Origin: Chloroflexota bacterium
Lineage (GTDB): Bacteria > Chloroflexota > Anaerolineae > Promineifilales > Promineifilaceae
DNA length: 8,393 bases
NCBI GenBank assembly: GCA_008501785.1
Contig: QQUD01000347.1
Coordinates: 1-8,393, forward strand
Direction of reading: 5' to 3'
Part shown: positions 1-8,393 of the stretch, one piece after another
Numbering within the stretch: the first letter of the stretch is position 1
How the letters are laid out: the number at the start of each line of letters is the position of its first letter
Notes under the pieces: model-generated
Told to the model about the DNA's origin: nothing
The model's database searches: none
What the model saw: the letters and a program-made list of their open reading frames with translations, nothing else
Made by a program: the position numbers and the translations under genes

Positions 1-591
1 CATCTTGGTTGGGTCTTGTCTGCGCAATCGCGCCAAAAAGACAAAGAAGCGCACCCAGGTATTGTGAAATACCGAAAAATACATGCGCTGCGGCTGATAA
101 GGCGGCAAATCAAATTCAGGATATTGCTCCGCATCTGCTGCGGCTTCAAACGCAGCCGTCGTGATTTTCCAGCATTGAATGTGGTCCGGGTGGAAGTAAC
201 CACCCGTTTCATCATGCGTCACAATCACCTGTGGCCGAATCTCCCGAATCAGCTTCACCACTTTGCCAATCGCTTCATAATCGTCAGACTGGACAAAAGC
301 GTCGGGGTGTTCGTTGGCCGGATCATTGATGTAGCCGGAATCTCGGTAATCGAGTGTGTGAAGGGTTGCGCCGAGGATGGAAACGGCCGTTTCCAACTCC
401 ACCTCTCGCACCGCCGCCAACTTCTCCCGCTGTTCTTCAAACGCTTCCACCACCGAACCGGCCGCGCCATCTGTGGCAATCGCAATATGCACATCCACTC
501 CCTCCGCCGCATATCGCGCAAATGTGCCACCCGGACCAAAAGATTCGTCGTCGGGGTGGGCCAAAACTGCAAGTAATCGTTTGTTTTCCAT
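1..591 (-). CDS. PIG-L / LmbE-family zinc deacetylase, C-terminus beyond window
   Basis: The 197 visible codons run off the left edge of the window without a stop, so the protein is incomplete. The N-terminus has the family signature AHPDDE (residues 11-16), followed by a GGT turn (21-23), and a second metal motif HPDH lies at 134-137 within THDETGGYFHPDH. In the PIG-L/LmbE/MshB family these His and Asp residues bind Zn2+, and Asp15 is the expected catalytic base. The enzymes remove an acetyl group from GlcNAc-type conjugates, and the family includes MshB, BshB and GlcNAc-PI deacetylase. No signal peptide is seen, so it is likely cytoplasmic. The ATG at 591 is favoured because AAAGGTG (594-600) sits just upstream and AHPDDE falls at the usual distance from the start. 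The actual substrate cannot be told from this sequence. The gene carries a perfect 16-bp GGAAACGGCCGTTTCC palindrome at 379-394. Confidence 0.93.
   Translation of the reverse strand, partial: MENKRLLAVLAHPDDESFGPGGTFARYAAEGVDVHIAIATDGAAGSVVEAFEEQREKLAAVREVELETAVSILGATLHTLDYRDSGYINDPANEHPDAFVQSDDYEAIGKVVKLIREIRPQVIVTHDETGGYFHPDHIQCWKITTAAFEAAADAEQYPEFDLPPYQPQRMYFSVFHNTWVRFFVFLARLRRQDPTKM
379..394. repeat. ACGGCCGT palindrome, site 1 (perfect 16-mer)
   Basis: GGAAACGGCCGTTTCC is a perfect 16-bp palindrome inside the PIG-L gene. It is read there as GAA ACG GCC GTT TCC (E-T-A-V-S). It is the longest and probably consensus form of the repeated motif. Confidence 0.9.
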
Positions 592-593
592 AT

Positions 594-600
594 CACCTTT
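594..600 (-). promoter_or_regulatory. Ribosome binding site of the PIG-L gene
   Basis: AAAGGTG on the minus strand ends two bases before the ATG at 591. It supports that start codon and shows that translation can begin independently after the long stem-loop at 620-688. Confidence 0.6.
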
Positions 601-619
601 CAAATAAAAGTGATTAGTG

Positions 620-688
620 GTGAGTGGTTAGTGGTGAGAATAAGCTTGAAATTGACTAACCACTATTCACTTACCACTAACCACTCAC
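620..688. repeat. Spacer stem-loop built from a 14-bp GTGAGTGGTTAGTG unit
   Basis: A perfect 16-bp stem is formed by GTGAGTGGTTAGTGGT at 620-635 and its complement at 673-688. Imperfect pairing continues inward for several more bases. The arms consist of degenerate direct repeats of a 14-bp unit: GTGAGTGGTTAGTG at 620-633, with a shorter relative GTGATTAGTG at 610-619. Read on the minus strand, the right arm holds GTGAGTGGTTAGTG and then GTAAGTGAATAGTG. The element fills the space between the hydrolase stop (690-692) and the next gene's ribosome binding site. An A/T-rich run (602-610; TTTTATTT on the minus strand) follows nine bases later, which is too far for a classical terminator. Confidence 0.75.
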
Positions 689-689
689 T

Positions 690-1451
690 CTATCTTTCCT
701 TATGAAAATGTTGCATCATGGGCAGGAGCGGTATCTGTTGCAGAGTGGCATACGGGTGACGCACACCGGGCAAGACAATGAGTTCGCCTTTAGGCAAAAT
801 GCGGCTGAGCCGCTGGGCTTCGGGCAACGGAACCAGCTCATCTCGCTCACCCACTGATACTAAAACCGGACATTGTACATTCTTTAATTGATTTTCTTTT
901 AAGCCAGATTGTGCCATTTCGGCAGTTAAAACACCTGCCTGTCGCACCAGTTCTCGCCATTGACGAGCGCCATGTTCTTGCACAAGCTGGTTGGCATAGG
1001 CAGGCACTTTTTCCGCCATCACATCCGGGTTAAGCTGGGCCTGAAACCCTTTGACAGCTTCTGGCGTCCAATAGAACTTGGATGCGTGCATGAGCAAGGT
1101 ATGAACTCGGCGCGGATAGGCCAAGCTCATCATTAAGCCCAGATAGCCGCCTAAACTATAACCAGCCACATGCACTTCTGGAATTTGCACATAGTCGAGC
1201 AAACCAACCACATCAGCCAGCATCCGATCTGTGGAGAGGGTATTGGCTTTATTTTGAGAACGGCCGTGTCCCCGCAAATCCATCAACATAAGACGAAAAT
1301 CAGGCGTCAGTGCCTTTACAAAATTGCGCCATTGGCTGCTGATCGTACCCAACAATCCAGGCAGCAGCAGCAGCACCGGCTTTTCTTGGTCACGTCCACC
1401 AAACATCTCAAAATACATTTCAGAGCCGTCATCGGCAGTCCATGTTGACAT
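690..1451 (-). CDS. Alpha/beta-fold hydrolase
   Basis: This 253-residue protein has the alpha/beta-hydrolase layout. An oxyanion-loop LLPGLLG lies at 29-35, MDLRGHGRS at 57-65, and the nucleophile elbow GYSLGG at 97-102 with Ser99. Asp204 in GERDELVP and His232 in GVRHPYAT complete a plausible catalytic triad. The length is normal for small cytoplasmic esterase, lipase or C-C hydrolase relatives, and no signal peptide is present. A helical cap is suggested by residues 125-190. The ATG at 1451 is preceded on the minus strand by GAGGATGGTGCGTA, whose GAGG is somewhat distant (10 bases). The substrate is unknown. The gene follows acpS by 59 bp and a dyad repeat occupies most of that gap. GHGRS is encoded through one of the ACGGCCGT sites (1260-1267). 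Confidence 0.9.
   Translation of the reverse strand: MSTWTADDGSEMYFEMFGGRDQEKPVLLLLPGLLGTISSQWRNFVKALTPDFRLMLMDLRGHGRSQNKANTLSTDRMLADVVGLLDYVQIPEVHVAGYSLGGYLGLMMSLAYPRRVHTLLMHASKFYWTPEAVKGFQAQLNPDVMAEKVPAYANQLVQEHGARQWRELVRQAGVLTAEMAQSGLKENQLKNVQCPVLVSVGERDELVPLPEAQRLSRILPKGELIVLPGVRHPYATLQQIPLLPMMQHFHKER
1260..1267. repeat. ACGGCCGT palindrome, site 2
   Basis: An 8-bp core in the hydrolase gene, read as CAC GGC CGT (H-G-R), a different frame from site 1. Confidence 0.8.
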
Positions 1452-1471
1452 TACGCACCATCCTCATCATG

Positions 1472-1504
1472 AGGTGCGAAGCACTTTTGAAGTGCGTTGC
1501 ACCT
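1472..1504. repeat. GTGC-N3-GCAC double-dyad repeat, copy 1
   Basis: The arms AGGTGCGAAGCACTT (1472-1486) and AAGTGCGTTGCACCT (1490-1504) pair with two mismatches around a 3-base loop. Each arm is itself a small palindrome (GTGC-GAA-GCAC and GTGC-GTT-GCAC), with centres 18 bp apart. It lies between the acpS stop and the hydrolase start. Confidence 0.85.
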
Positions 1505-1510
1505 GATTGG

Positions 1511-1885
1511 TTACTCATCTTTTTGTCCCGTGGCAACAGCGAAACCTATGGCGTGGGTGTCTGTATGTGACAAGCTAATCGACCATTCGGTCAAGCCCAA
1601 CTGTGTGGCTAACTGTTTCGCCTGATTGTGAAGCACCAGCCCAGGGCGGCCGCGCTCATTACAAACAACTTCAATATCCGTCCAGCTTACATCACCAATG
1701 CCCGTGCCCAACGCTTTGCCTACTGCTTCCTTTACTGCAAAACGTCCAGCCAAACTTGTGAATCTCCCAGCACAATAAGCCACTTCTTGCGCCGTAAAAA
1801 ACCGCTGCAAAAAGCGCTCCCCGTGCCGGGAAATCCCACGTTCAATGCGGGCTACTTCGATCATGTCTACGCCAGTTGATAACAT
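1511..1885 (-). CDS. acpS: Holo-[acyl-carrier-protein] synthase
   Basis: AcpS transfers 4'-phosphopantetheine from CoA to a serine of acyl carrier protein, which makes ACP active for fatty-acid synthesis. The 124-residue length matches the family. The N-terminal GVDMIEVARIER (5-16) contains the Mg2+-binding Asp7. FTSLAGRFAVKEAVGKALGT (42-61) contains the conserved Glu53, and SLSHT (104-108) is the third typical motif. The ATG at 1885 is chosen because it gives the standard AcpS N-terminus. A GTG at 1903 would add six residues that are encoded inside the flanking repeat. No good ribosome binding site is seen before either start: only ACAGAA separates the repeat from the ATG. Upstream is the M16 gene (91 bp away) and downstream the hydrolase. 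Neither has an obvious link to lipid synthesis. Confidence 0.95.
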   Translation of the reverse strand: MLSTGVDMIEVARIERGISRHGERFLQRFFTAQEVAYCAGRFTSLAGRFAVKEAVGKALGTGIGDVSWTDIEVVCNERGRPGLVLHNQAKQLATQLGLTEWSISLSHTDTHAIGFAVATGQKDE

Positions 1886-1890
1886 TTCTG

Positions 1891-1924
1891 TGGTGCGTTG
1901 CACGTTCTGAAGTGCGATGCACCT
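1891..1924. repeat. GTGC-N3-GCAC double-dyad repeat, copy 2
   Basis: The dyads GTGC-GTT-GCAC (1893-1903) and GTGC-GAT-GCAC (1912-1922) have centres 19 bp apart, and the two arms form an imperfect hairpin. The element ends five bases before the acpS ATG and so forms its immediate leader. On the minus strand a purine-rich GGGAGGTG (1920-1927) overlaps the far edge of the repeat. It is far from the start, as if a ribosome binding site had been pushed away or is supplied elsewhere. Confidence 0.85.
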
Positions 1925-1963
1925 CCCTCACTACAAATCTCGAATCCTCATAAGCCTTGCTCT

Positions 1964-1998
1964 AAGTGCAACGCACCTAGGAAGGTGCAATGCGCTGG
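1964..1998. repeat. GTGC-N3-GCAC double-dyad repeat, copy 3, overlapping the M16 gene end
   Basis: The dyads GTGC-AAC-GCAC (1966-1976) and GTGC-AAT-GCGC (1985-1995) have centres 19 bp apart. CACCT (1974-1978) and AGGTG (1984-1988) can pair around AGGAA. This is the most degenerate copy. Its right half is inside the M16 coding region and supplies its last codons, QRIAPS, and the stop (1977-1979). Confidence 0.7.
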
Positions 1999-3272
1999 GA
2001 GGGTGGTCCTGCAACTGCTACCACCACTTGCTCACTGCTCAAATATTTCTGGGCAGCAGTTTGAATGCGTTCCTGGGTTATATCACGAATCAGGTCGGGG
2101 TAGTGTAATAAATAATCCAATCCTAATTCATACAGTTCCATGTCGGTGATCACGTCAGCCATGCCTGCATTGGTTTCTAGACCAACAGGCAGCGAGCCGA
2201 TGCGATAGGTTTGGCTATCTGCGAGTTCTTCAGGCGAAATCAATTCATTCTGAATACGTTCAATTTCTTGCAAAATGCTGTTTGTGGCTTTGTCGATGTC
2301 GCCAGGAGCGACACCCGCACAGGCCATCCAGGGAGTAGGCCCCAAGCCACCTTGCAAACGGCTGTAGGCATAATACGCCAGCCCTTGCTCTTCGCGTACG
2401 GTTTGCCCGATGCGCCCCATCATGCCAAACACGCCAAGAATTGTGTTCATCAGGCTGGCATCGAGGTAATCGGGCACGGAACGGCGTGGACCGGGCAAGC
2501 CAATGACTAAATCGGCCTGGGATTTGTCGGGGATGGAAACGGCCGTTTTCACCACCCGCTCCGGTCTCGCCACATCTGCCACACTTGACACAACTTGCTG
2601 TGCCGGAACCTGCCAATCCCCAAACAACGCTTCTACTTTTGCTAACGCTGCGGCTGCCTTAACCGCGCCCACCACCGTGACAATCATGCCTTGTGGGCCA
2701 AAATGGCGCTGGTGGAAGTTGGCAATATCTTCACGGGTAATGGTTGGAATCGTGTGATCGTAACCGCGCTGAGAACGGCCGTAAGGATGTTCCTGATACA
2801 ACGCTTCTCGAAACGAGAGCAGCGCCATTTGACCCGTGTCACTAGCCCGCATCTGCAAACCGGTCATGATTTGACCGCGCAATTGCTCAACTTGCACCGC
2901 CGGAAATGTTGGCCCCCGCAATGATTGTGCCACCACTTCCAGCAGCAAATCTAAATCCTCAACCAGACCTTGTCCCGAAAAACTGGTGTGGTGGTAGCCG
3001 CTGCCAAACACCACTTCGGCACCAACCGATTCCAGCGCATCGTAAATCTGTGCAAACGAGCGCTGATTAGTGCCACGCATCAGCAGTGCGGATGTCATGT
3101 TAGCTAATCCGGCTTGTGCCGCTATCTCAGCCAGCGAGCCAGTCCGCACCAATCCTTCAATCACCACAGATTCGGTAACGAAGTTTTCGTAAATCAATAC
3201 CGTGATGCCGTTTGGCAGTTGGTGGCGGTGAATTGTATTAGCATTGGGATATTGTGAGTTCTGTTTGCCCAT
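1977..3272 (-). CDS. M16-family (insulinase/pitrilysin-like) protein lacking the zinc motif
   Basis: This 431-residue protein (from the ATG at 3272) has the two-halved layout of M16B proteins. The N-half begins HQLPNGITVLIYEN and the C-half contains REEQGLAYYAYS (293-304). Active M16 enzymes have HxxEH inside GLAHFLEHMLFKGT. The aligned segment here is GLANMTSALLMRGT, with Asn58, Ser61 and Ala62 in place of His, Glu and His, so zinc-dependent proteolysis is not expected. The Arg293/Tyr300 pair of the C-half is kept. In bacterial heterodimeric M16 pairs and in mitochondrial processing peptidase, one subunit carries zinc and the other is a non-catalytic partner, and this protein looks like such a partner. 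No zinc-bearing partner is in the window. No signal peptide is evident. A TTG at 3302 could add ten residues, but the ATG better fits the family and the promoter at 3279-3307. Confidence 0.92.
   Translation of the reverse strand: MGKQNSQYPNANTIHRHQLPNGITVLIYENFVTESVVIEGLVRTGSLAEIAAQAGLANMTSALLMRGTNQRSFAQIYDALESVGAEVVFGSGYHHTSFSGQGLVEDLDLLLEVVAQSLRGPTFPAVQVEQLRGQIMTGLQMRASDTGQMALLSFREALYQEHPYGRSQRGYDHTIPTITREDIANFHQRHFGPQGMIVTVVGAVKAAAALAKVEALFGDWQVPAQQVVSSVADVARPERVVKTAVSIPDKSQADLVIGLPGPRRSVPDYLDASLMNTILGVFGMMGRIGQTVREEQGLAYYAYSRLQGGLGPTPWMACAGVAPGDIDKATNSILQEIERIQNELISPEELADSQTYRIGSLPVGLETNAGMADVITDMELYELGLDYLLHYPDLIRDITQERIQTAAQKYLSSEQVVVAVAGPPSQRIAPS
2537..2548. repeat. ACGGCCGT palindrome, site 3 (12-bp)
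   Basis: AAACGGCCGTTT in the M16 gene, read as AAA ACG GCC GTT (K-T-A-V). Confidence 0.85.
2775..2782. repeat. ACGGCCGT palindrome, site 4
   Basis: An 8-bp core in the M16 gene, read as TAC GGC CGT (Y-G-R). Confidence 0.8.
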
Positions 3273-3278
3273 GTGAAT

Positions 3279-3307
3279 ATAATACCATTCGCACCCGTGC
3301 AAGCCAA
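3279..3307 (-). promoter_or_regulatory. Candidate sigma-70-type promoter giving a leaderless M16 mRNA
   Basis: On the minus strand TTGGCT (3302-3307) and TATTAT (3279-3284) are separated by exactly 17 bp, matching the -35/-10 consensus at four and five of six bases. Transcription would start about seven bases further on, at or next to the ATG at 3272. No ribosome binding site is present before that ATG, which fits a leaderless message. This is inferred from sequence alone. Confidence 0.4.
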
Positions 3308-3321
3308 TTGTGGGGGGATAG

Positions 3322-3397
3322 ACAACAACAGATTGGAGTAATAAACAGATTTTTCTGGGAAAATCCAGAATCTGATTTTACTCCAATCTGTTGTTGT
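3322..3397. repeat. Perfect 20-bp inverted repeat spanning the phosphatase stop codon
   Basis: ACAACAACAGATTGGAGTAA (3322-3341) is exactly complementary to 3378-3397. A smaller imperfect stem is nested inside (CAGAT and TCTGG at 3346-3358 with CCAGAATCTG at 3365-3374). The right arm is coding: it provides the last residues NNNRLE and the TAA (3378-3380) of the phosphatase gene. The left arm is intergenic. No T-run follows on the minus strand, so it is not a standard intrinsic terminator. It may protect the mRNA 3' end or act as a Rho-independent block of another kind. Confidence 0.85.
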
Positions 3398-5231
3398 TTG
3401 GATTGCGGCGCACGATGAACAAGGTGATGTCGTCAGAAGTGGTCATGCCATCCGTAAACGTGCGAACGGCGTTGAGGATGGTTTCGATCAAGGTATCAGC
3501 AGGGGTGTCGGGAACGGCCGTTAACACATCCGTCACCACCTCATGCAACCGTGTCTCACCAAACTCCTGATAACCAGCATTCACAGCTTCTGTAATGCCA
3601 TCAGTATAAAAAACAAGCACATCCCCCGGCGCAATCTCGACTAACTTTTCTTCGATTTTTACTTCATCAAGGATGCCCAATACGACGCCTTTTGTTGTGA
3701 GGCTGGTAATTGTTTGATCAGCAGCATGCCACCAGAGCGGTTGATTGTGACCAGCGTTGGCGAAGGTGAAACGGCCGTTTTCCAATCCCAAAACCCCATA
3801 AAATGCCGTCAAAAACATGTCCGTCTGGCTATCTTCCTGAATATATTGGTTGGCGAGAATCAAAGATTTTGCTGGGGAGCGTCCACGCAGCGCATTGTTG
3901 CGAATGGCAGAGCGACTCAGCGCCATAAACAGCGCCGCTGGCACACCTTTGTCAGACACATCGGCGATAATGAGACCTAAATCCCCCTCTGGCAGTTCAA
4001 AAAAGTCATAAAAATCACCGCCTACCTGTTTGGCAGGTTCATAGGCTGCGGCCACATCCCAGCCAGGGAATTCGGGACAGCTTGGGGGCAGCATACTCAT
4101 TTGAATTTGTCGTCCCACCGCCAACTCTTCTTCGAGCCGGTGGTGCGCCAACTCCTCCTCGCGCAGCCGGGTTCGGTCAATGGCAATGGCGGCTTGGTTC
4201 GCCATCAACTGCAAAAAGCGAATCTCTGATGGCTCAAAATGGCGCGGATATCGGGTATTTATCACCATTGCACCAATTGATCGCTCCTCCACCACCAAAG
4301 GCACAATAGCCGTGCTTTTCAACCCTTCAGCCAGCAGCCAATCTGACATCCACAGCGAACCAACTGGATGTTGGTTCTGGTCCCCTGTGTATAACGGCCG
4401 TTGTGTGTGCATCACCAAACCCGACCCGCTGCGCTGATCTGCTGGCACACAATACTCATTTTCTACTGGGTTTGTTTGCCAACCAGATGCAGCCCGAAAT
4501 GCCAAAAAACGCGCATCTTCCGCTGGCAGCAACAGCGCACATGCATCCACATCCAGCAACTGTCGCACAGCCGTCAATAAATAATTCATCAAATCATCCA
4601 AATCACGGCGGCCGAGCAGTTCACTCGACACATGCAGTAGTGCCGCCTGCTCATGAATGCGCTGCTCCTGCACCAAATCAAAGAGCCATGCTCGCTCTAA
4701 CGCAATCCCCATCATATTGCCCACATTCGTTAGCAGTGCCAACGCCCGCTCACTAAATGCCTCCCAAGATGGGGCAGCAACATTTAAAATGCCCAATCCT
4801 TCTTTTCCAGCTTGCAGCGGCGTTGATGCATGAACAACCAATCCGTTTTTATCTCCCTCAGCTTCACCCAAGCGGCTGCATTTTACTTCGTTGTAGGCTT
4901 GATTTAACTCACCATTTTGGCAAAGGCGCTGGCAGTCACACCCCTTGTCCCACGCATTTGGATTTTCGAAGGCAATCGCAGGTGGCAATTGTTGGTGAGC
5001 CGCCAGCACAAACCCACGCCCCGCCCAGCGATCTTGCGCCGCTTTATCTTGCAAAAATATCCACGCAGTTTGTAACCCCATCAACGTCACTAACTGCGTC
5101 AGTGCCGACTCTAGCGTACTGCGCACATCAACCGACCTGTTCAGCGTATCTGCAATCTGATTCAACATGCGCAAATCAGCTACTTCGGTTTCATTATTTG
5201 GTTCGATTTCTAAAGCTTCATCTTTATTCAT
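3378..5231 (-). CDS. GAF-GAF-SpoIIE/RsbU-type PP2C serine phosphatase
   Basis: This 617-residue soluble signalling protein has three parts. A first GAF domain (about 25-180) carries a cysteine cluster, Cys98, Cys100, Cys104 and Cys118. A second GAF domain (about 200-353) is followed by a charged helical linker (354-378). A SpoIIE-type PP2C domain (380-610) contains GGDFYDFF (404-411), ADVSDKGVPAALFMA (423-437), ANAGHNQPL (491-499), YTDGITEA (542-549) and SDDITL (599-604). The Asp residues of these motifs bind Mn2+/Mg2+ in the family. Such enzymes dephosphorylate anti-sigma-factor antagonists in partner-switching pathways, with GAF domains as sensory input. No anti-sigma or antagonist gene is nearby. 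The ATG at 5231 is preferred. A TTG at 5252 would add seven residues but would start at the foot of the upstream stem-loop. Neither start has a clear ribosome binding site. Confidence 0.93.
   Translation of the reverse strand: MNKDEALEIEPNNETEVADLRMLNQIADTLNRSVDVRSTLESALTQLVTLMGLQTAWIFLQDKAAQDRWAGRGFVLAAHQQLPPAIAFENPNAWDKGCDCQRLCQNGELNQAYNEVKCSRLGEAEGDKNGLVVHASTPLQAGKEGLGILNVAAPSWEAFSERALALLTNVGNMMGIALERAWLFDLVQEQRIHEQAALLHVSSELLGRRDLDDLMNYLLTAVRQLLDVDACALLLPAEDARFLAFRAASGWQTNPVENEYCVPADQRSGSGLVMHTQRPLYTGDQNQHPVGSLWMSDWLLAEGLKSTAIVPLVVEERSIGAMVINTRYPRHFEPSEIRFLQLMANQAAIAIDRTRLREEELAHHRLEEELAVGRQIQMSMLPPSCPEFPGWDVAAAYEPAKQVGGDFYDFFELPEGDLGLIIADVSDKGVPAALFMALSRSAIRNNALRGRSPAKSLILANQYIQEDSQTDMFLTAFYGVLGLENGRFTFANAGHNQPLWWHAADQTITSLTTKGVVLGILDEVKIEEKLVEIAPGDVLVFYTDGITEAVNAGYQEFGETRLHEVVTDVLTAVPDTPADTLIETILNAVRTFTDGMTTSDDITLFIVRRNPNNNRLE
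3513..3522. repeat. ACGGCCGT palindrome, site 5 (10-bp)
   Basis: AACGGCCGTT in the phosphatase gene, read as TTA ACG GCC GTT (L-T-A-V). Confidence 0.85.
3769..3780. repeat. ACGGCCGT palindrome, site 6 (12-bp)
   Basis: AAACGGCCGTTT in the phosphatase gene, read as GAA AAC GGC CGT TTC (E-N-G-R-F). It is shifted in frame relative to site 5 in the same gene. Confidence 0.85.
4393..4402. repeat. ACGGCCGT palindrome, site 7 (10-bp)
   Basis: AACGGCCGTT in the phosphatase gene, read as CAA CGG CCG TTA (Q-R-P-L). This gene therefore uses the motif in all three frames. Confidence 0.85.
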
Positions 5232-5250
5232 GATTGACAAGAAACGATTC

Positions 5251-5331
5251 AAAAAGAATAATGATCAAAGATGACACCGATTTCGCAGATTTTTTCATCG
5301 GCGTCATTTGCGAAATCTTTGATCAGTTATT
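5251..5331 (-). terminator. Stem-loop plus T-run after the methyltransferase gene
   Basis: AATAATGATCAAAGAT (5257-5272) pairs with 5315-5331 with one bulged base. On the minus strand the stem is followed directly by CTTTTTG (5250-5256), the layout of an intrinsic terminator for the methyltransferase transcript. The stem is A/T-rich, so its strength is uncertain. The loop holds two further, mutually exclusive pairings: ATGACACCGAT (5271-5281) with 5297-5307, and ATTTCGCA (5280-5287) with TGCGAAAT (5309-5316). Confidence 0.5.
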
Positions 5332-6030
5332 TTAAAAATGTTTCCACCAAATGCCGGTGCATTCGGGCAAAATGGTGAGTTGTTCGGCCAAAATATGATC
5401 GGCCATTCCATCACCAAAAAAGAAACGCGTCAACGATGCGCCTTCTTCGGGTGAGGAAAATTGGTAATCGGTACGAATCCAGGTGCGTTCATATCCGTGG
5501 ACAGTCTCCAGCCAATGGTAGTATGCTTCCAGATGTGGGGCGGGCGGTTTGGGTGTTTCGCGCCCGGTTCCCAACGTTTCGAGCAGCACAATGGTGCCAC
5601 CGGGTTGGATCATACGCTGCATTTCAGTCAGCATTTGGCTGATTTTGGTTTGCCAACTGTTGGGATACCAGCCTACTGAATGGGCTAAACTCCAACCGGC
5701 GATGGCGAAAACGGCCGTTTCCCCCACCAGCGGCAAATGACGATTTTCCGCCACTGCTAAAGTAAAATTATCACACCCACAACCCTGAAATTTTGCAGCC
5801 GCCACTGTTAACATCGCCTCTGCTTGATCAAACGCAATAATATGATCCACAAAAGGCAGCAACAATTCAGTCACACGCCCTGTTCCGGCCCCCAATTCTA
5901 CCACCGATGCCCCCGTCAATGGCACAATTTTTTGAATCGCCCGCAGCAAATTTCCCTCATAATCTTCGCAAGCAACCATGCGATCGTATAAATCGCTTTG
6001 GGTTTTGTAAATTTGCTGATAATCTGTCAT
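5332..6030 (-). CDS. Class I SAM-dependent methyltransferase
   Basis: This 232-residue protein has a Rossmann-type methyltransferase core. Motif I VELGAGTGR (44-52) binds S-adenosylmethionine. The acidic end of strand two is IIAFDQAEAML (64-74), LAVAENRHLPL (91-101) is the next SAM-pocket segment, and IQPGGTIVLLETLGTG (141-156) is the strand 5 region typical of small-molecule and ubiquinone/menaquinone-like methyltransferases. No membrane segment is seen. The C-terminal part is rich in aromatic residues (YYHWLE, FFFGDG, IWWKHF) and probably shapes the substrate site, but the methyl acceptor cannot be named. The ATG at 6030 is well supported by AAGGA (6038-6042). The gene sits alone between two stem-loop spacers. 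Confidence 0.9.
   Translation of the reverse strand: MTDYQQIYKTQSDLYDRMVACEDYEGNLLRAIQKIVPLTGASVVELGAGTGRVTELLLPFVDHIIAFDQAEAMLTVAAAKFQGCGCDNFTLAVAENRHLPLVGETAVFAIAGWSLAHSVGWYPNSWQTKISQMLTEMQRMIQPGGTIVLLETLGTGRETPKPPAPHLEAYYHWLETVHGYERTWIRTDYQFSSPEEGASLTRFFFGDGMADHILAEQLTILPECTGIWWKHF
5709..5720. repeat. ACGGCCGT palindrome, site 8 (12-bp)
   Basis: AAACGGCCGTTT in the methyltransferase gene, read as GAA ACG GCC GTT TTC (E-T-A-V-F). Confidence 0.85.
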
Positions 6031-6037
6031 TTTATTT

Positions 6038-6042
6038 TCCTT
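6038..6042 (-). promoter_or_regulatory. Ribosome binding site of the methyltransferase gene
   Basis: AAGGA on the minus strand, seven bases before the ATG at 6030, is the clearest Shine-Dalgarno sequence in the window. It fixes this start. Confidence 0.7.
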
Positions 6043-6063
6043 GGAGAGATGACATCGAATATT

Positions 6064-6134
6064 AGGAATTAGCGAATGAAGAAATTCAGAAGAACAAATT
6101 TATTCGTTGATTCCTATCATTCGTTGTTCTCTTC
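6064..6134. repeat. Spacer stem-loop between the ClC and methyltransferase genes
   Basis: AGGAATTAGCGAAT (6064-6077) pairs over 14 positions with ATTCGTTGATTCCT (6102-6115), using two G-T pairs. A competing pairing also exists: GCGAATGA (6072-6079) with TCATTCGT (6118-6125), and GAAGAACAA (6089-6097) with TTGTTCTCTTC (6124-6134, one bulge). There is no T-run on the minus strand. The sequence is unrelated to the other spacer stem-loops. Confidence 0.65.
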
Positions 6135-6146
6135 ATGGCAAATCGG

Positions 6147-7988
6147 TTATTCTTCTTCATCCTCTGCAATTGAGGAATGATTAACATCATCATCAAACTG
6201 TTCAGGTCTCGGATTTAGCGGCAATGTCCGAATCGTCTGCTCTAGCTGATCGAGCTTTTCGTCACGGCCTAACACAACCAGGATATCACCGCTTTCCAAT
6301 ATCGTTGCTGAGCTTGTATTGAGCCGGATGCGCGGCAAACCTGATTCATCGCGTCGTTCCATCAAACCAATCACATTCAAATCAAATTGATTGCGGAAAT
6401 TGAGGTCAATTAAGGTGTGCCCCACCCACGCAGCAGGAACCGGAATACGACGTGTGCTCACTCCCGGCATAATTTGGCGACCACTGTGTTTTTCGCGCTG
6501 CGTGCGGTAAATGGTGTGATCATGCGCAAACACAGATGCGACCACCAGCATCACCAACGCGGGCATCATGTACGCCGTGCCATACACTTCTACCGTAAAC
6601 AAAATAGCGGCCAACGGCACATTCACGATAGACACCAAACTAGCCGTCATGGCGGGAATGATGAACATCATCGGCTGGTAGCCTTCAAAAATGGAGCTAA
6701 AAACGGCCGCGACCATGGTGCTAAAGAAAAGGGACGGCACCAGCAGCCCCGCCGAGCCGCCAGACCCAACCGTTGCCAGCGTCGCAATCATCTTGGCAAA
6801 TAAGGCAATCAAGGCAATCGCCATCGTCACTTCACCGGCCAACGCGGCATTCACCACCGATTCGCCCGGTCCCAAAACCAGTTCCAACCCGTTGATGCCA
6901 TGTCCACGCGGCACCAAATATTCAACTACGTAATAAACAATAACCGCCACAGTTCCCGTAAACGCAGCCCCCATCAAATGGCGTTGCCAGATATTGGGTT
7001 GTCGATGGTGGAATGCGTGTTCAAAACTGGCGCGTAAACGGCCGAAATAAATACTCATCAACGAAATGACGACGCCTAACAGCGCCAAAATGGCAAAATA
7101 TTGCCAATTTGACGGCGGCACAAACAGCGATTCAACTTCAAAGATGGCCGTATGACCATCGGTAAAGATGTCTGTTAAAAAGAAGGCAACCAATGATGAA
7201 ATAAGCGAGTAGACGAGCTTTTCGACGATGGGACGCTGCCGGTACATCACTTCGGTCGCAAAGAATGCCGCTGCAAATGGCGCACCAAACAACACGGATA
7301 CAGCGGCTGCAATGCCGCTCAACTGTGCCGTTTGCAAATCGTCGGGATTGTCAGGTCGCCACCAGCGCCACAGCCGCCCGATGATGCTCATGCGCTTGTC
7401 GGCATCGTAAACGATTTGACGCGGCTTAAACAAGCCAGCCGAGACACTTTCACCAATCAATGTCACGCTGGCTTCAAGACCACCGCTACCACCGCTGCCC
7501 AGTGTGACCAACGTTGCCAGAAATTTGCGCAGCGCCAGCGTAAAGGTGGGTAAGTTCCATCGTACTTCGACCCCTTCTTGCCCGGTGAGCGCCTGCTCAA
7601 ACGTGGATTCGGATGTGTAGTAAAGGGAGATGGCGCGTTCGAGACCATCCCCTTCAACATCAAGCAGTTCGTGAACATGACCATCGCCATCTCGATAATG
7701 GATCACGGCAGAGCGAGATTTGGTAATCGCCGCCACAATCAGCGCCCCGGTTAGCAATGGCACAAATACGAGAAATGGCGTCGGGCCATCTTCTAAAAAG
7801 TGAAGCGTGTTTTCAAATGCCCAATGGACGGCTTCTTTTAGCGAAAATACAATCGCCCACACAACTACTCCAATAACAACAGATTGAAACACAGGCCGCC
7901 GCTCTTCTTCATCGAAGTAATCAGGCAGATTGCGCACAATATTGAGATATTTAACAGTATCGGTCAAGGATTTTAGGATTAGTTTCAT
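6147..7988 (-). CDS. ClC-family chloride channel/transporter with C-terminal RCK_C-like domain
   Basis: This 613-residue inner-membrane protein has many hydrophobic helices between about 35 and 490. Core ClC signatures are GSGGSGGLEASVTLIGES (164-181), where Glu172 matches the gating glutamate of GREGP, then FGAPFAAAFFATEVM (234-248), GSGGSAGLLVPS (408-419, the GxFxP region) and NVPLAAILFTVEVYGTAYMMPA (456-477) with a Tyr473 candidate for the anion-coordinating tyrosine. Residues about 512-590 resemble an RCK_C (TrkA-C) ligand-binding domain, with RIPVPAAWVGHTLIDLNF and SGDILVVLG. An acidic tail ends the protein (DDDVNH, AEDEEE). The internal proton-glutamate site reads Glu-Val (246-247), as in channels, rather than Glu-Glu as in E. 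coli ClC. The usual GSGIP motif is diverged. The ATG at 7988 follows a dyad repeat by 13 bases and lacks a ribosome binding site. Confidence 0.94.
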   Translation of the reverse strand: MKLILKSLTDTVKYLNIVRNLPDYFDEEERRPVFQSVVIGVVVWAIVFSLKEAVHWAFENTLHFLEDGPTPFLVFVPLLTGALIVAAITKSRSAVIHYRDGDGHVHELLDVEGDGLERAISLYYTSESTFEQALTGQEGVEVRWNLPTFTLALRKFLATLVTLGSGGSGGLEASVTLIGESVSAGLFKPRQIVYDADKRMSIIGRLWRWWRPDNPDDLQTAQLSGIAAAVSVLFGAPFAAAFFATEVMYRQRPIVEKLVYSLISSLVAFFLTDIFTDGHTAIFEVESLFVPPSNWQYFAILALLGVVISLMSIYFGRLRASFEHAFHHRQPNIWQRHLMGAAFTGTVAVIVYYVVEYLVPRGHGINGLELVLGPGESVVNAALAGEVTMAIALIALFAKMIATLATVGSGGSAGLLVPSLFFSTMVAAVFSSIFEGYQPMMFIIPAMTASLVSIVNVPLAAILFTVEVYGTAYMMPALVMLVVASVFAHDHTIYRTQREKHSGRQIMPGVSTRRIPVPAAWVGHTLIDLNFRNQFDLNVIGLMERRDESGLPRIRLNTSSATILESGDILVVLGRDEKLDQLEQTIRTLPLNPRPEQFDDDVNHSSIAEDEEE

Positions 7989-8001
7989 AGGTTTTTGGAC
8001 A

Positions 8002-8034
8002 AGGTGCGACGCATTTCAGAAGTGCGTCGCACCT
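8002..8034. repeat. GTGC-N3-GCAC double-dyad repeat, copy 4 (best conserved)
   Basis: The arms AGGTGCGACGCATTT (8002-8016) and AAGTGCGTCGCACCT (8020-8034) pair at 14 of 15 positions around CAG. The inner dyads are centred at 8009 and 8027, 18 bp apart. It fills the 51-bp gap between the uncharacterised gene and the ClC start. The minus strand has no T-run after it, so it is not a typical terminator. Confidence 0.88.
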
Positions 8035-8039
8035 GAATT

Positions 8040-8393
8040 TTACTCATTGACACGGATAACTTCGTAGGTGTCGGTAACAACGGCCGTTTCCAACCCCATC
8101 ATCGCTTCTATGCCACCAAACCCATCCACCAAATCATGGGCACGGACGGTAACGGCCGTCTCATCCTCAGGAATCACAATATTGCTCTGACTGCGCGTAA
8201 ATGGCTGTTCCGTTTCGTGTGGATGCAGCAGCAGGCGCGTAAACGGGCTGTCTGCATCGGGCAAAATGACGGTCCCGTCTGGCAGCACCACATCCCACCC
8301 ATCTGCGTAATCTTCCCAGCCGCTGTCAGGATGTGCCACGGTTACGGAAAATGTCCAGGTGTTGGGGCTGGTTTCGGTGGCTTTGACGAAAAG
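8040..8393 (-). CDS. Conserved uncharacterised protein, N-terminus beyond window
   Basis: The reading frame is open from the right edge to the stop at 8040-8042, giving 118 visible residues that begin LFVKATETSPNTWTFSVTVA. A GTG at 8339 is in frame, but the frame continues upstream with protein-like sequence, so the true start lies outside the window. Recognisable blocks are TWTFSVTVAHPDSGWEDYAD (13-32), WDVVLPDGT (34-42), LLLHPHETEQPFTRS (55-69) and VTVRAHDLVDGFGG (82-95). From memory, similar blocks (F-x-V-T-V-x-H-x-D-x-G-W-x-x-Y-A-D, HPH-x-x-EQPFTRS, V-x-A-x-D) recur in small uncharacterised proteins of proteobacteria. No function is known to me. The pattern of short strands suggests a beta-rich fold. 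It contains two ACGGCCGT sites, both read as ETAV. Confidence 0.8.
   Translation of the reverse strand, partial: LFVKATETSPNTWTFSVTVAHPDSGWEDYADGWDVVLPDGTVILPDADSPFTRLLLHPHETEQPFTRSQSNIVIPEDETAVTVRAHDLVDGFGGIEAMMGLETAVVTDTYEVIRVNE
8079..8088. repeat. ACGGCCGT palindrome, site 9 (10-bp)
   Basis: AACGGCCGTT in the uncharacterised gene, read as GAA ACG GCC GTT GTT (E-T-A-V-V). Confidence 0.85.
8152..8159. repeat. ACGGCCGT palindrome, site 10
   Basis: An 8-bp core in the uncharacterised gene, 72 bp from site 9, read as GAG ACG GCC GTT ACC (E-T-A-V-T). Confidence 0.8.

What the first reader, a model, noticed from the sequence alone, without database searches (positions are those of the whole stretch)
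379..8159. A HIP1-like highly iterated palindrome, ACGGCCGT (consensus GGAAACGGCCGTTTCC)
ACGGCCGT occurs ten times, at 381-392, 1260, 2539, 2775, 3514, 3771, 4394, 5711, 8080 and 8152. With equal base frequencies about 0.13 copies are expected in 8.4 kb. Seven copies extend to AACGGCCGTT, for which the expectation is below 0.01. The core CGGCCG occurs five more times (459, 1647, 4609, 6704, 7039). All ten are inside genes of unrelated function. They are read as T-A-V six times, N/H/Y-G-R three times and R-P-L once, and the phosphatase gene uses all three frames. Selection or drive therefore acts on DNA, not protein. The cyanobacterial HIP1 octamer GCGATCGC behaves this way and has been linked to DNA methylation. 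I know of no described HIP with this sequence. Possible causes are a methyltransferase or repair bias, a chromosome-organising protein site, or strand-symmetric mutation bias.
Basis: partly seen in the sequence, partly recalled or inferred. Interest (0 to 1): 0.82.

Follow-up and report, generated by a model that had tools for sequence, protein, structure and literature searches.

The report
Chloroflexota highly iterated palindrome ACGGCCGT
An eight-letter DNA palindrome is scattered thousands of times through the genomes of one group of Chloroflexota bacteria, and through some viral contigs, and is kept unchanged by evolution even where the protein code would let it drift, much like the unexplained HIP1 sequence of cyanobacteria.

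Summary
In detail: ten ACGGCCGT in 8,393 bases, 0.10 expected. It is not local. The window's own genome is not held, but 20 relatives carry 991-2,102 copies per Mb (2,984-14,867 each; reversed-sequence control 55-459). It is the top-ranked octamer in three genomes ranked, 44-67 times a second-order Markov model. It uses all reading frames and non-coding DNA, and is dense in some IMG/VR contigs, two with portal or terminase genes. Between two congeners, 99 of 107 ungapped sites are shared; codon-3 divergence is 15.3% outside and 1.6% inside sites. DNA-level constraint is therefore shown. Related lineages favour bare CGGCCG or TCGGCCGA. It behaves as a highly iterated palindrome (HIP), a class described from cyanobacteria. 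Cytosine-5 methylase PF00145 is absent in 9 of 20 carriers, but a permuted DNA methylase of unknown target was found in the three carriers where I looked for it. I favour a genome-wide recognition site under weak selection; the cognate factor is unknown.

The parts
383..390 (.). ACGGCCGT site 1, context GGAAACGGCCGTTTCC; PIG-L gene, reads T-A-V
1260..1267 (.). ACGGCCGT site 2; alpha/beta hydrolase gene, reads H-G-R
2539..2546 (.). ACGGCCGT site 3; M16 peptidase gene, reads T-A-V
2775..2782 (.). ACGGCCGT site 4; M16 peptidase gene, reads Y-G-R
3514..3521 (.). ACGGCCGT site 5; GAF-SpoIIE phosphatase gene, reads T-A-V
3771..3778 (.). ACGGCCGT site 6; same phosphatase gene, reads N-G-R
4394..4401 (.). 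ACGGCCGT site 7; same phosphatase gene, reads R-P-L
5711..5718 (.). ACGGCCGT site 8; SAM-methyltransferase-domain gene, reads T-A-V
8080..8087 (.). ACGGCCGT site 9; ORF 8040-8393 (no Pfam match), reads T-A-V
8152..8159 (.). ACGGCCGT site 10; ORF 8040-8393, reads T-A-V
459..464 (.). core hexamer CGGCCG without the A..T pair
1647..1652 (.). core hexamer CGGCCG without the A..T pair
4609..4614 (.). core hexamer CGGCCG without the A..T pair
6704..6709 (.). core hexamer CGGCCG (A..C flanks) in the CLC channel gene
7039..7044 (.). core hexamer CGGCCG (A..A flanks) in the CLC channel gene

Best explanation
ACGGCCGT is a highly iterated palindrome of an Ardenticatenaceae/Leptofilum-like group of Anaerolineae (Chloroflexota). 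It works as a genome-wide recognition site for a sequence-specific factor of the cell, most simply a symmetric (dimeric) DNA-binding protein acting in chromosome upkeep such as nucleoid organisation or recombinational repair. Each site gives a small advantage, so new sites are favoured and old ones kept. SHOWN: genome-wide abundance in relatives, DNA-level conservation at synonymous and non-coding positions (one species pair), use of all reading frames, near-random spacing, high density on some viral contigs, and different outer base pairs around a constant CGGCCG core in related lineages. INFERRED: that a bound factor exists, that it is dimeric, and that selection rather than an equivalent biased repair holds the sites.
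For: Abundance is 991-2,102 per Mb in 20 genomes, 44-67 times a second-order Markov model in three. G365 v G393 over 46.6 kb: 99 sites shared, 4+4 private in ungapped alignment, against 57% conservation of all 8-mers. Codon-3 divergence is 2117/13793 outside and 4/244 inside; non-coding is 404/4218 outside and 1/54 inside. Enrichment of 71-fold implies a scaled selection of about 4.3, which predicts a loss rate 0.06 of neutral; the observed codon-3 ratio is 0.11. Frame-matched flanks show C at outward positions 3 and 4 (z 3.3-13.1 in five genomes), and left and right flanks are largely independent (|z| 2.5 or less in 78 of 80 tests; -2.6 and 3.2 in the other two), as expected of two independent half-sites. 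14 of 22 IMG/VR contigs holding the 16-mer carry the octamer at 630-3,530 per Mb in the held pieces; of four of these contigs scanned for genes, two have portal or terminase matches. In aligned CLC genes of 18 carrier loci, 41 sites occupy 15 positions (several of these loci are close relatives).
Against: No cognate binding protein was identified. Biased conversion or repair has the same mathematics as weak selection, so the conservation data do not separate them. Spacing is close to Poisson (CV 0.97-1.45) with only codon periodicity, so no ordered architecture is seen. Flanks are C-enriched outward to about position 13 in four of the five genomes, broader than a typical half-site. A DNA methylase is present in the three carriers examined for it, so a methylation route is not excluded.
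Confidence: 0.5

Rival explanations
1. Methylation-linked drive, as Elhai proposed for cyanobacterial HIPs. A resident methylase marks (part of) ACGGCCGT, and methyl-directed mismatch repair favours mutations that create sites. The sites then need have no function of their own.
For: [quoted passage not shown] model). MutL-type PF01119 is present in 19 of 20 octamer carriers. G001, G007 and G181, among the carriers with no PF00145 and only weak PF01555 matches, each carry an orthologous ~670-aa permuted PF01555 methylase (57-60% identity to that of G007). G165, with the densest CGGCCG of the 44 genomes counted, has a HaeIII-like (GGCC) methylase.
Against: PF00145 is absent from 9 of 20 octamer genomes. 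Of the methylases fetched and clustered (56 of 60 loci), no cluster spans the carriers; the largest hold 10 proteins from 8 genomes and 7 from 7, non-carriers included. Near-misses by transition at positions 2-4 are little or not depleted (O/E 0.69-0.99), unlike very-short-patch repair. The hexamer-type G011 has neither a PF00145 nor a PF01555 match, though its assembly is fragmented. The specificity of the permuted methylase is unknown.
Confidence: 0.27
2. Pure mutation or repair bias: copying errors or context-dependent repair produce ACGGCCGT with neither function nor a marking enzyme.
For: Flanking bases are biased outward to about 13 nt in four of five genomes, as a mutational context effect might give. 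Viral contigs are affected too.
Against: The effect is sharp: changing one base at positions 2-4 gives O/E 0.31-0.99 against 71 for the full site, and all eight positions of existing sites are about equally frozen (0.9-1.9% divergence v 7.5% in flanks). Protein sequence is altered in its favour: TAV 171 v 25, 164 v 20 and 64 v 11 expected in three genomes.
Confidence: 0.12
3. DNA uptake signal (DUS/USS-like), accumulated because competent cells take up DNA that carries it.
For: Density of about one per 0.5-1 kb and scattering through genes resemble uptake sequences (density recalled; location within ORFs in passages of Bakkali 2007, PMC1939737).
Against: That paper describes uptake sequences as non-palindromic. 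Viral contigs, two with packaging genes, carry the octamer at host-like density, and tailed phages do not enter through the competence pore (general knowledge). I did not test for competence genes.
Confidence: 0.07
4. By-product of codon or amino-acid usage.
For: More than half of the coding sites read T-A-V in each of the three genomes examined (168/320, 160/273, 57/83; with totals).
Against: Synonymous shuffles give 34.5, 31.8 and 7.2 against 320, 273 and 83 observed, and codon-order shuffles 6.6, 4.6 and 1.4. All three frames and non-coding DNA are used.
Confidence: 0.01

Closest known systems
HIP1 (GCGATCGC) of cyanobacteria
   Same: GC-rich palindromic octamer, about 300-2,700 per Mb in most cyanobacteria outside Group C1 (Elhai 2015, Table 2), reported to be maintained by selection (as cited in PMC6604393, passage), and broadly distributed in a lineage.
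   Different: Different sequence and core (CGGCCG, not CGATCG) and a different phylum. No GATC. No PF00145 methylase common to all carriers. Found here at high density on some viral contigs (I have no data on HIP1 in cyanophages).
Alternative cyanobacterial HIPs (GGCGCC in Calothrix 7103, rCCGGy in Oscillatoria 10802, GGGATCCC in Synechococcus OS types)
   Same: A different GC-rich palindrome takes over in a lineage, generally at 1,000-2,000 per Mb.
   Different: Elhai describes those as sporadic, not in clades. Here the octamer type groups together in the CLC tree, with weak support (39/84) for the dividing branch, beside hexamer and TCGGCCGA relatives.
DNA uptake sequences (Haemophilus, Neisseria)
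   Same: Short, dense and genome-wide.
   Different: Not palindromic. The motif here is a palindrome and occurs on viral contigs.
REP-type palindromes, e.g. the Caldithrix abyssi 18-mer
   Same: Repeated palindrome in a bacterial genome.
   Different: The Caldithrix core has 38 exact copies and prefers intergenic DNA (PMC5317091, passages). Here there are thousands, at higher density inside genes than outside.

Membership tests
HIP class (Elhai 2015) | GC-rich short palindrome (at least 75% GC) | tested here: met
   ACGGCCGT is palindromic with 6 of 8 G/C; Elhai's description read in a passage
HIP class (Elhai 2015) | Abundance of order 1,000-2,000 per Mb | tested here: met
   20 genomes at 991-2,102 per Mb
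HIP class (Elhai 2015) | Top octamer of the genome | tested here: met
   First by standardised excess over a second-order Markov model in samples of three genomes (80-180 kb each), and highest O/E of the 14 words listed for each. First palindromic octamer in the window and in 20 of 39 named loci, in 18 of them at 709-2,820 per Mb and in L025 and L031 with only 3 and 2 copies
HIP class (Elhai 2015) | Symmetric extension of the palindrome in some genomes | tested here: met
   Outer T (AACGGCCGTT) at 0.87 in G006 and 0.59 in G003; C at outward +3/+4 in all five genomes
HIP class (Elhai 2015) | A methylase able to modify the site is present | tested here: inconclusive
   No PF00145 in 9 of 20 octamer genomes; permuted PF01555 methylase of unknown target in 3 of 3 carriers examined
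HIP class (Elhai 2015) | One-off deviations biased to the first and last base | tested here: met
   One-off words at position 1 have O/E 1.24-3.32, at positions 2-4 0.31-0.99
HIP1 proper | Sequence GCGATCGC in a cyanobacterium | tested here: not met
   Different core; named best relatives of two window proteins are Chloroflexota
DNA uptake sequence | Preferential uptake of DNA that carries the motif | not testable with these tools
   Needs a transformation assay
DNA uptake sequence | Non-palindromic, oriented motif | tested here: not met
   Perfect palindrome; feature read in a passage
REP elements | Intergenic location | tested here: not met
   Coding 1.97/2.15/1.14 v non-coding 1.52/1.78/0.55 per kb in three genomes

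The most novel reading that the evidence does not exclude
A permuted ~670-aa methylase of this group (motif I first, TDPPY motif IV last, long recognition region between) methylates the outer adenine of ACGGCCGT. The CGGCCG core was the older recognition site of a host factor, and the A..T pair was added when this methylase took over. Methylated octamers then mark self DNA for repair or defence, which phages mimic by carrying the octamer at host density. This would be a HIP read through adenine rather than cytosine methylation. Consistent with it: hexamer-type G011 has no PF01555 match, the five matches of hexamer-type G165 are all listed and none shows the split pattern of this protein (detection is marginal, E 4.6e-4 in G007), and TCGGCCGA of G008 also has an A/T outer pair. 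That DPPY points to adenine is recalled, not tested.
Probability: 0.12. Interest if true: 0.88.

Novelty: new member of a known kind. Interest (0 to 1): 0.73.

Why it matters
HIP1 was described in 1995 (reference seen) and its function is still debated; the HIP literature I could read is cyanobacterial. A second HIP system in another phylum, with its own core, variants in related lineages (CGGCCG, TCGGCCGA, ACGGCCGT) and carriage on viral contigs, turns one case into a comparative experiment. Any general theory of HIPs (cytosine methylation, mismatch repair, nucleoid sites, uptake) must now explain both. It also shows a DNA signal strong enough to write a tripeptide (T-A-V) about six- to eightfold above expectation into the proteins of three sampled genomes, and it offers a simple k-mer signature for assigning contigs and phages to this host group.

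Tried and rejected
Maximal-order Markov test: rejected as uninformative. Hairpin or palindrome-extension origin: no consistent left-right correlation in flanks. Helical or other periodic spacing: only period 3 stands out; the 16.7-bp peak (power 8.5) is not significant over about 375 periods tried (my estimate). Very-short-patch-repair signature: near-miss transitions little or not depleted. A single shared methylase among those fetched: no cluster spans the carriers (four of 60 loci, L056, L069, L090 and L093, were left out, and mostly one locus per genome was fetched). I first read the data as 'no methylase needed'; some searches showed a permuted methylase in G001, G007 and G181, so that reading was withdrawn. 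It was not found in viral contigs; plasmids gave 131 records, all under 60% identity, and phages one partial match; among the 232 loci held it occurs only in the loci that brought it in. CLC relatives in viral contigs: none. Literature: the listings showed no report of ACGGCCGT as an iterated palindrome nor of a HIP in Chloroflexota. This covers that open-access library only, and searches listed just 10 of 1,235 and 12 of 113,089 papers. Xu 2018 (PMC5861425) and the 2011 HIP1 survey (PMC3271550) are not held and were not read.
Full report
OBSERVATION. The window holds ten ACGGCCGT and fifteen CGGCCG. Dinucleotide shuffles give 0.10 and 2.44, and 0 of 200 shuffles reach the observed number in either case. 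The genes are PIG-L, alpha/beta hydrolase, AcpS, M16 peptidase, GAF-SpoIIE phosphatase, SAM methyltransferase, CLC channel and an ORF without a Pfam match. The methyltransferase matches general domains (Methyltransf_25/11), not DNA-methylase ones. Among the 120 relatives listed for each of the M16 and CLC proteins, those with a name are Chloroflexota (Ardenticatenaceae, Anaerolineae, Leptofilum and others). The window's own genome is not held, so all genome-wide statements below rest on relatives.

GENOME-WIDE. A CLC profile gave 39 named genome loci. ACGGCCGT ranks first among palindromic octamers in the window and in 20 of the 39; in 18 of these it stands at 709-2,820 per Mb, in the other two (L025, L031) it is 3 and 2 copies, and in all loci outside the 18 it is at most 303 per Mb. 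Whole-genome counts: 15 genomes chosen from those loci and 396 genomes of the class of G001, a named Anaerolineae MAG (the draw includes several of the 15; completeness is not told). The class distribution is bimodal: 21 of 396 exceed 400 per Mb and the next is 179 per Mb. Of those 21, 19 have 991 or more per Mb; G165 (421) and G292 (514) are hexamer-type. With G003, which was not in the class draw, there are 20 octamer genomes at 991-2,102 per Mb, for example 14,867 copies in 7.7 Mb of G007, whose reversed-sequence control is 185. In a sample of 121 genomes of the phylum only the centre genome G001 is a carrier.

STATISTICS. In samples of G009 (180 kb), G365 (140 kb) and G006 (80 kb) it ranks first of all octamers by standardised excess, at 346 v 7.9, 295 v 5.7 and 87 v 1.3 expected under a second-order Markov model. 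Coding density exceeds non-coding (1.97, 2.15, 1.14 v 1.52, 1.78, 0.55 per kb). Genes were called by a longest-ORF heuristic. Synonymous-codon shuffling leaves 34.5, 31.8 and 7.2 of 320, 273 and 83 coding sites; shuffling codon order leaves 6.6, 4.6 and 1.4 (40 shuffles each). The gap between these two nulls shows that amino-acid sequence has also been pulled: TAV occurs 171, 164 and 64 times against 25.3, 20.0 and 10.6 expected.

MAINTENANCE. G365 and G393 are the only two genomes held in their genus. Over 46,600 aligned columns (7.2% mismatch), 99 sites are shared and 8 are private in ungapped alignment, while 57% of all 8-mers and 34 of 73 GCCGGC sites are shared. Counting one further site that lies across an alignment gap, one search has 99 shared of 108 (94 of 101 coding, 5 of 7 non-coding). 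Divergence by codon position outside sites is 4.0, 1.8 and 15.3% (non-coding 9.6%); inside sites it is 3/272, 3/288, 4/244 and 1/54. This is DNA-level constraint, shown for one species pair. A 71-fold enrichment (pooled 580 kb of five genomes) corresponds to a scaled selection of about 4.3, predicting losses at 0.06 of the neutral rate; the observed codon-3 ratio is 0.11. Selection and an equivalent biased repair are not separable by this. Over larger distances, 41 sites in aligned CLC genes of 18 loci (the window's gene has none) fall at 15 positions, two of them shared by 7 and 8 loci; some of these loci are near-identical, and one reading (L010) ran past the gene.

ANATOMY. CGGCCG is the rigid core. 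One-off words at positions 2-4 have O/E 0.31-0.99, at position 1 1.24-3.32. Frame-matched flanks show C at outward positions 3 and 4 in all five genomes (z 3.3-13.1), T at position 1 in G365, G006 and G003, and in all but G006 a weaker outward C excess to about 13 nt. Left and right flanks are largely independent: of 80 tests 78 have |z| of 2.5 or less, the others being -2.6 (G009, position 2) and 3.2 (G007, position 1). Spacing is close to Poisson (CV 0.97-1.45, with one 8.6-kb gap in G003); only the coding period of 3 stands out.

VARIANTS AND DESCENT. Other genomes are rich in CGGCCG without the A..T pair: 21,019 in 4.1 Mb of G165 against 132 for the reversed control, 20,841 and 22,240 in G401 and G402 (controls 1,202 and 1,218), and 25,568 in G011 (control 7,284). 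High counts alone are not enough: G014 has 16,185 against a control of 14,460 and G111 15,758 against 17,419, i.e. base composition. In samples, CGGCCG is 18.8, 13.5 and 6.6 times a second-order model in G165, the G401/G402/G010 pool and G011. G008 prefers TCGGCCGA (103 v 2 ACGGCCGT in 80 kb). On a CLC protein tree of 37 rows (three remote rows of 40 left out) the octamer type is one side of one branch, but that branch has weak support (39/84) and one or two changes are compatible; hexamer rows need two changes. CLC may not follow species descent.

VIRUSES. The exact 16-mer GGAAACGGCCGTTTCC occurs in 29 stretches of 22 IMG/VR contigs. The held pieces of 14 contigs carry the octamer at 630-3,530 per Mb; those of the other eight contain only the one copy that brought them in. 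The set is selected for at least one site. ORFs were listed for seven of the 29 stretches and 20 proteins from five of them, on four contigs, were scanned: contig 3300037470_000663 has portal, DnaB and O-like replication matches, 3300030606_000015 a terminase match, and the other two (L140, L161) only replication-type or methylase matches; 10 of the 20 proteins had no match. Contigs were not checked for being complete viruses or for host DNA.

METHYLASES. PF00145 is absent from 9 of 20 octamer genomes: G001, G005, G006, G007, G181, G208, G227, G365, G393. PF01555 matches occur in 33 of 34 genomes; clusters of the fetched methylases do not span the carriers. PF02384 (N6) is present in 9 of 12 genomes searched, and absent in octamer genomes G006 and G181 and in hexamer-type G011. 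In G001, G007 and G181, PF01555 matches include split pieces of an orthologous ~670-aa protein with motif I before motif IV; in G007 it is the only one. Its listed relatives with a name are Chloroflexota (1,665 relatives, 120 listed), and plasmids hold remote ones. The DPPY-type motif suggests an adenine methylase (recalled, not tested). I could not survey it further, so a methylation-linked mechanism stays open. MutL-type PF01119 is present in 19 of 20 octamer genomes. G165 carries a HaeIII-like methylase. A published methylome of other Anaerolineae (CL500-11 group) lists GANTC, TTAA and GCWGC, with no mention of CGGCCG (PMC6329791, passages); whether that group carries the octamer is not known to me. 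MAG incompleteness limits every absence; G007, with its first five contigs at 396-544 kb, is the strongest case.

PLACE AMONG KNOWN THINGS. Elhai treats HIPs as a class of over-represented GC-rich oligomers, generally at 1,000-2,000 per Mb, HIP1 being the prime example (PMC4390886; abstract, parts of sections and passages read). By those features this is a new HIP. It fails membership of HIP1 itself, REP elements and, by palindromy, uptake sequences. Selection on HIP1 is cited second-hand (PMC6604393, passages). Within the library searched, the listings showed no report of this motif or of a HIP in Chloroflexota.

VERDICT. Observation confirmed; HIP-like interpretation supported and extended; cause unresolved between a selected recognition site (favoured), methylation-linked drive and repair bias.

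Noticed in passing
G013:C51:12001-26500 (L199, L200): In a genome almost free of the octamer (59 copies in 6.7 Mb), 13 copies cluster on one contig where GC falls from about 0.62 to 0.52, suggesting DNA acquired from a carrier or a chimeric contig.
   Followed up: partly
L112:3280-3385, L114:6000-6115, L114:16545-16682: Dispersed repeats of about 60-130 bp, in many copies in congener G393; the three G365 copies printed lack ACGGCCGT. They look like small mobile or REP-like elements.
   Followed up: partly
window about 1465-1505, 1890-1927, 1963-1999, 8000-8035: Stretches between or at the ends of genes share an inverted-repeat motif of the GTGCG..GCAC / AGGTGCG..CGCACCT kind, seen when reading the window.
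   Followed up: no
L164:9695-10948, L161:7119-7949: Two octamer-rich viral contigs each encode a phrog_67-type DNA methyltransferase (34% identical to each other), a possible counter-defence or marking enzyme.
   Followed up: partly
L042 (G165:C36:8896-9873): G165, with about 5,100 CGGCCG per Mb, encodes a methylase matching M.HaeIII over its whole length (E 4.5e-125). In a 58-kb sample, 253 of 316 GGCC lie within CGGCCG, i.e. GGCC is otherwise rare.
   Followed up: partly
proteins of carrier genomes (G009, G365, G006 samples): The tripeptide TAV is about 6-8 times over-represented, and NGR about 4-6 times, as a consequence of the DNA motif.
   Followed up: yes
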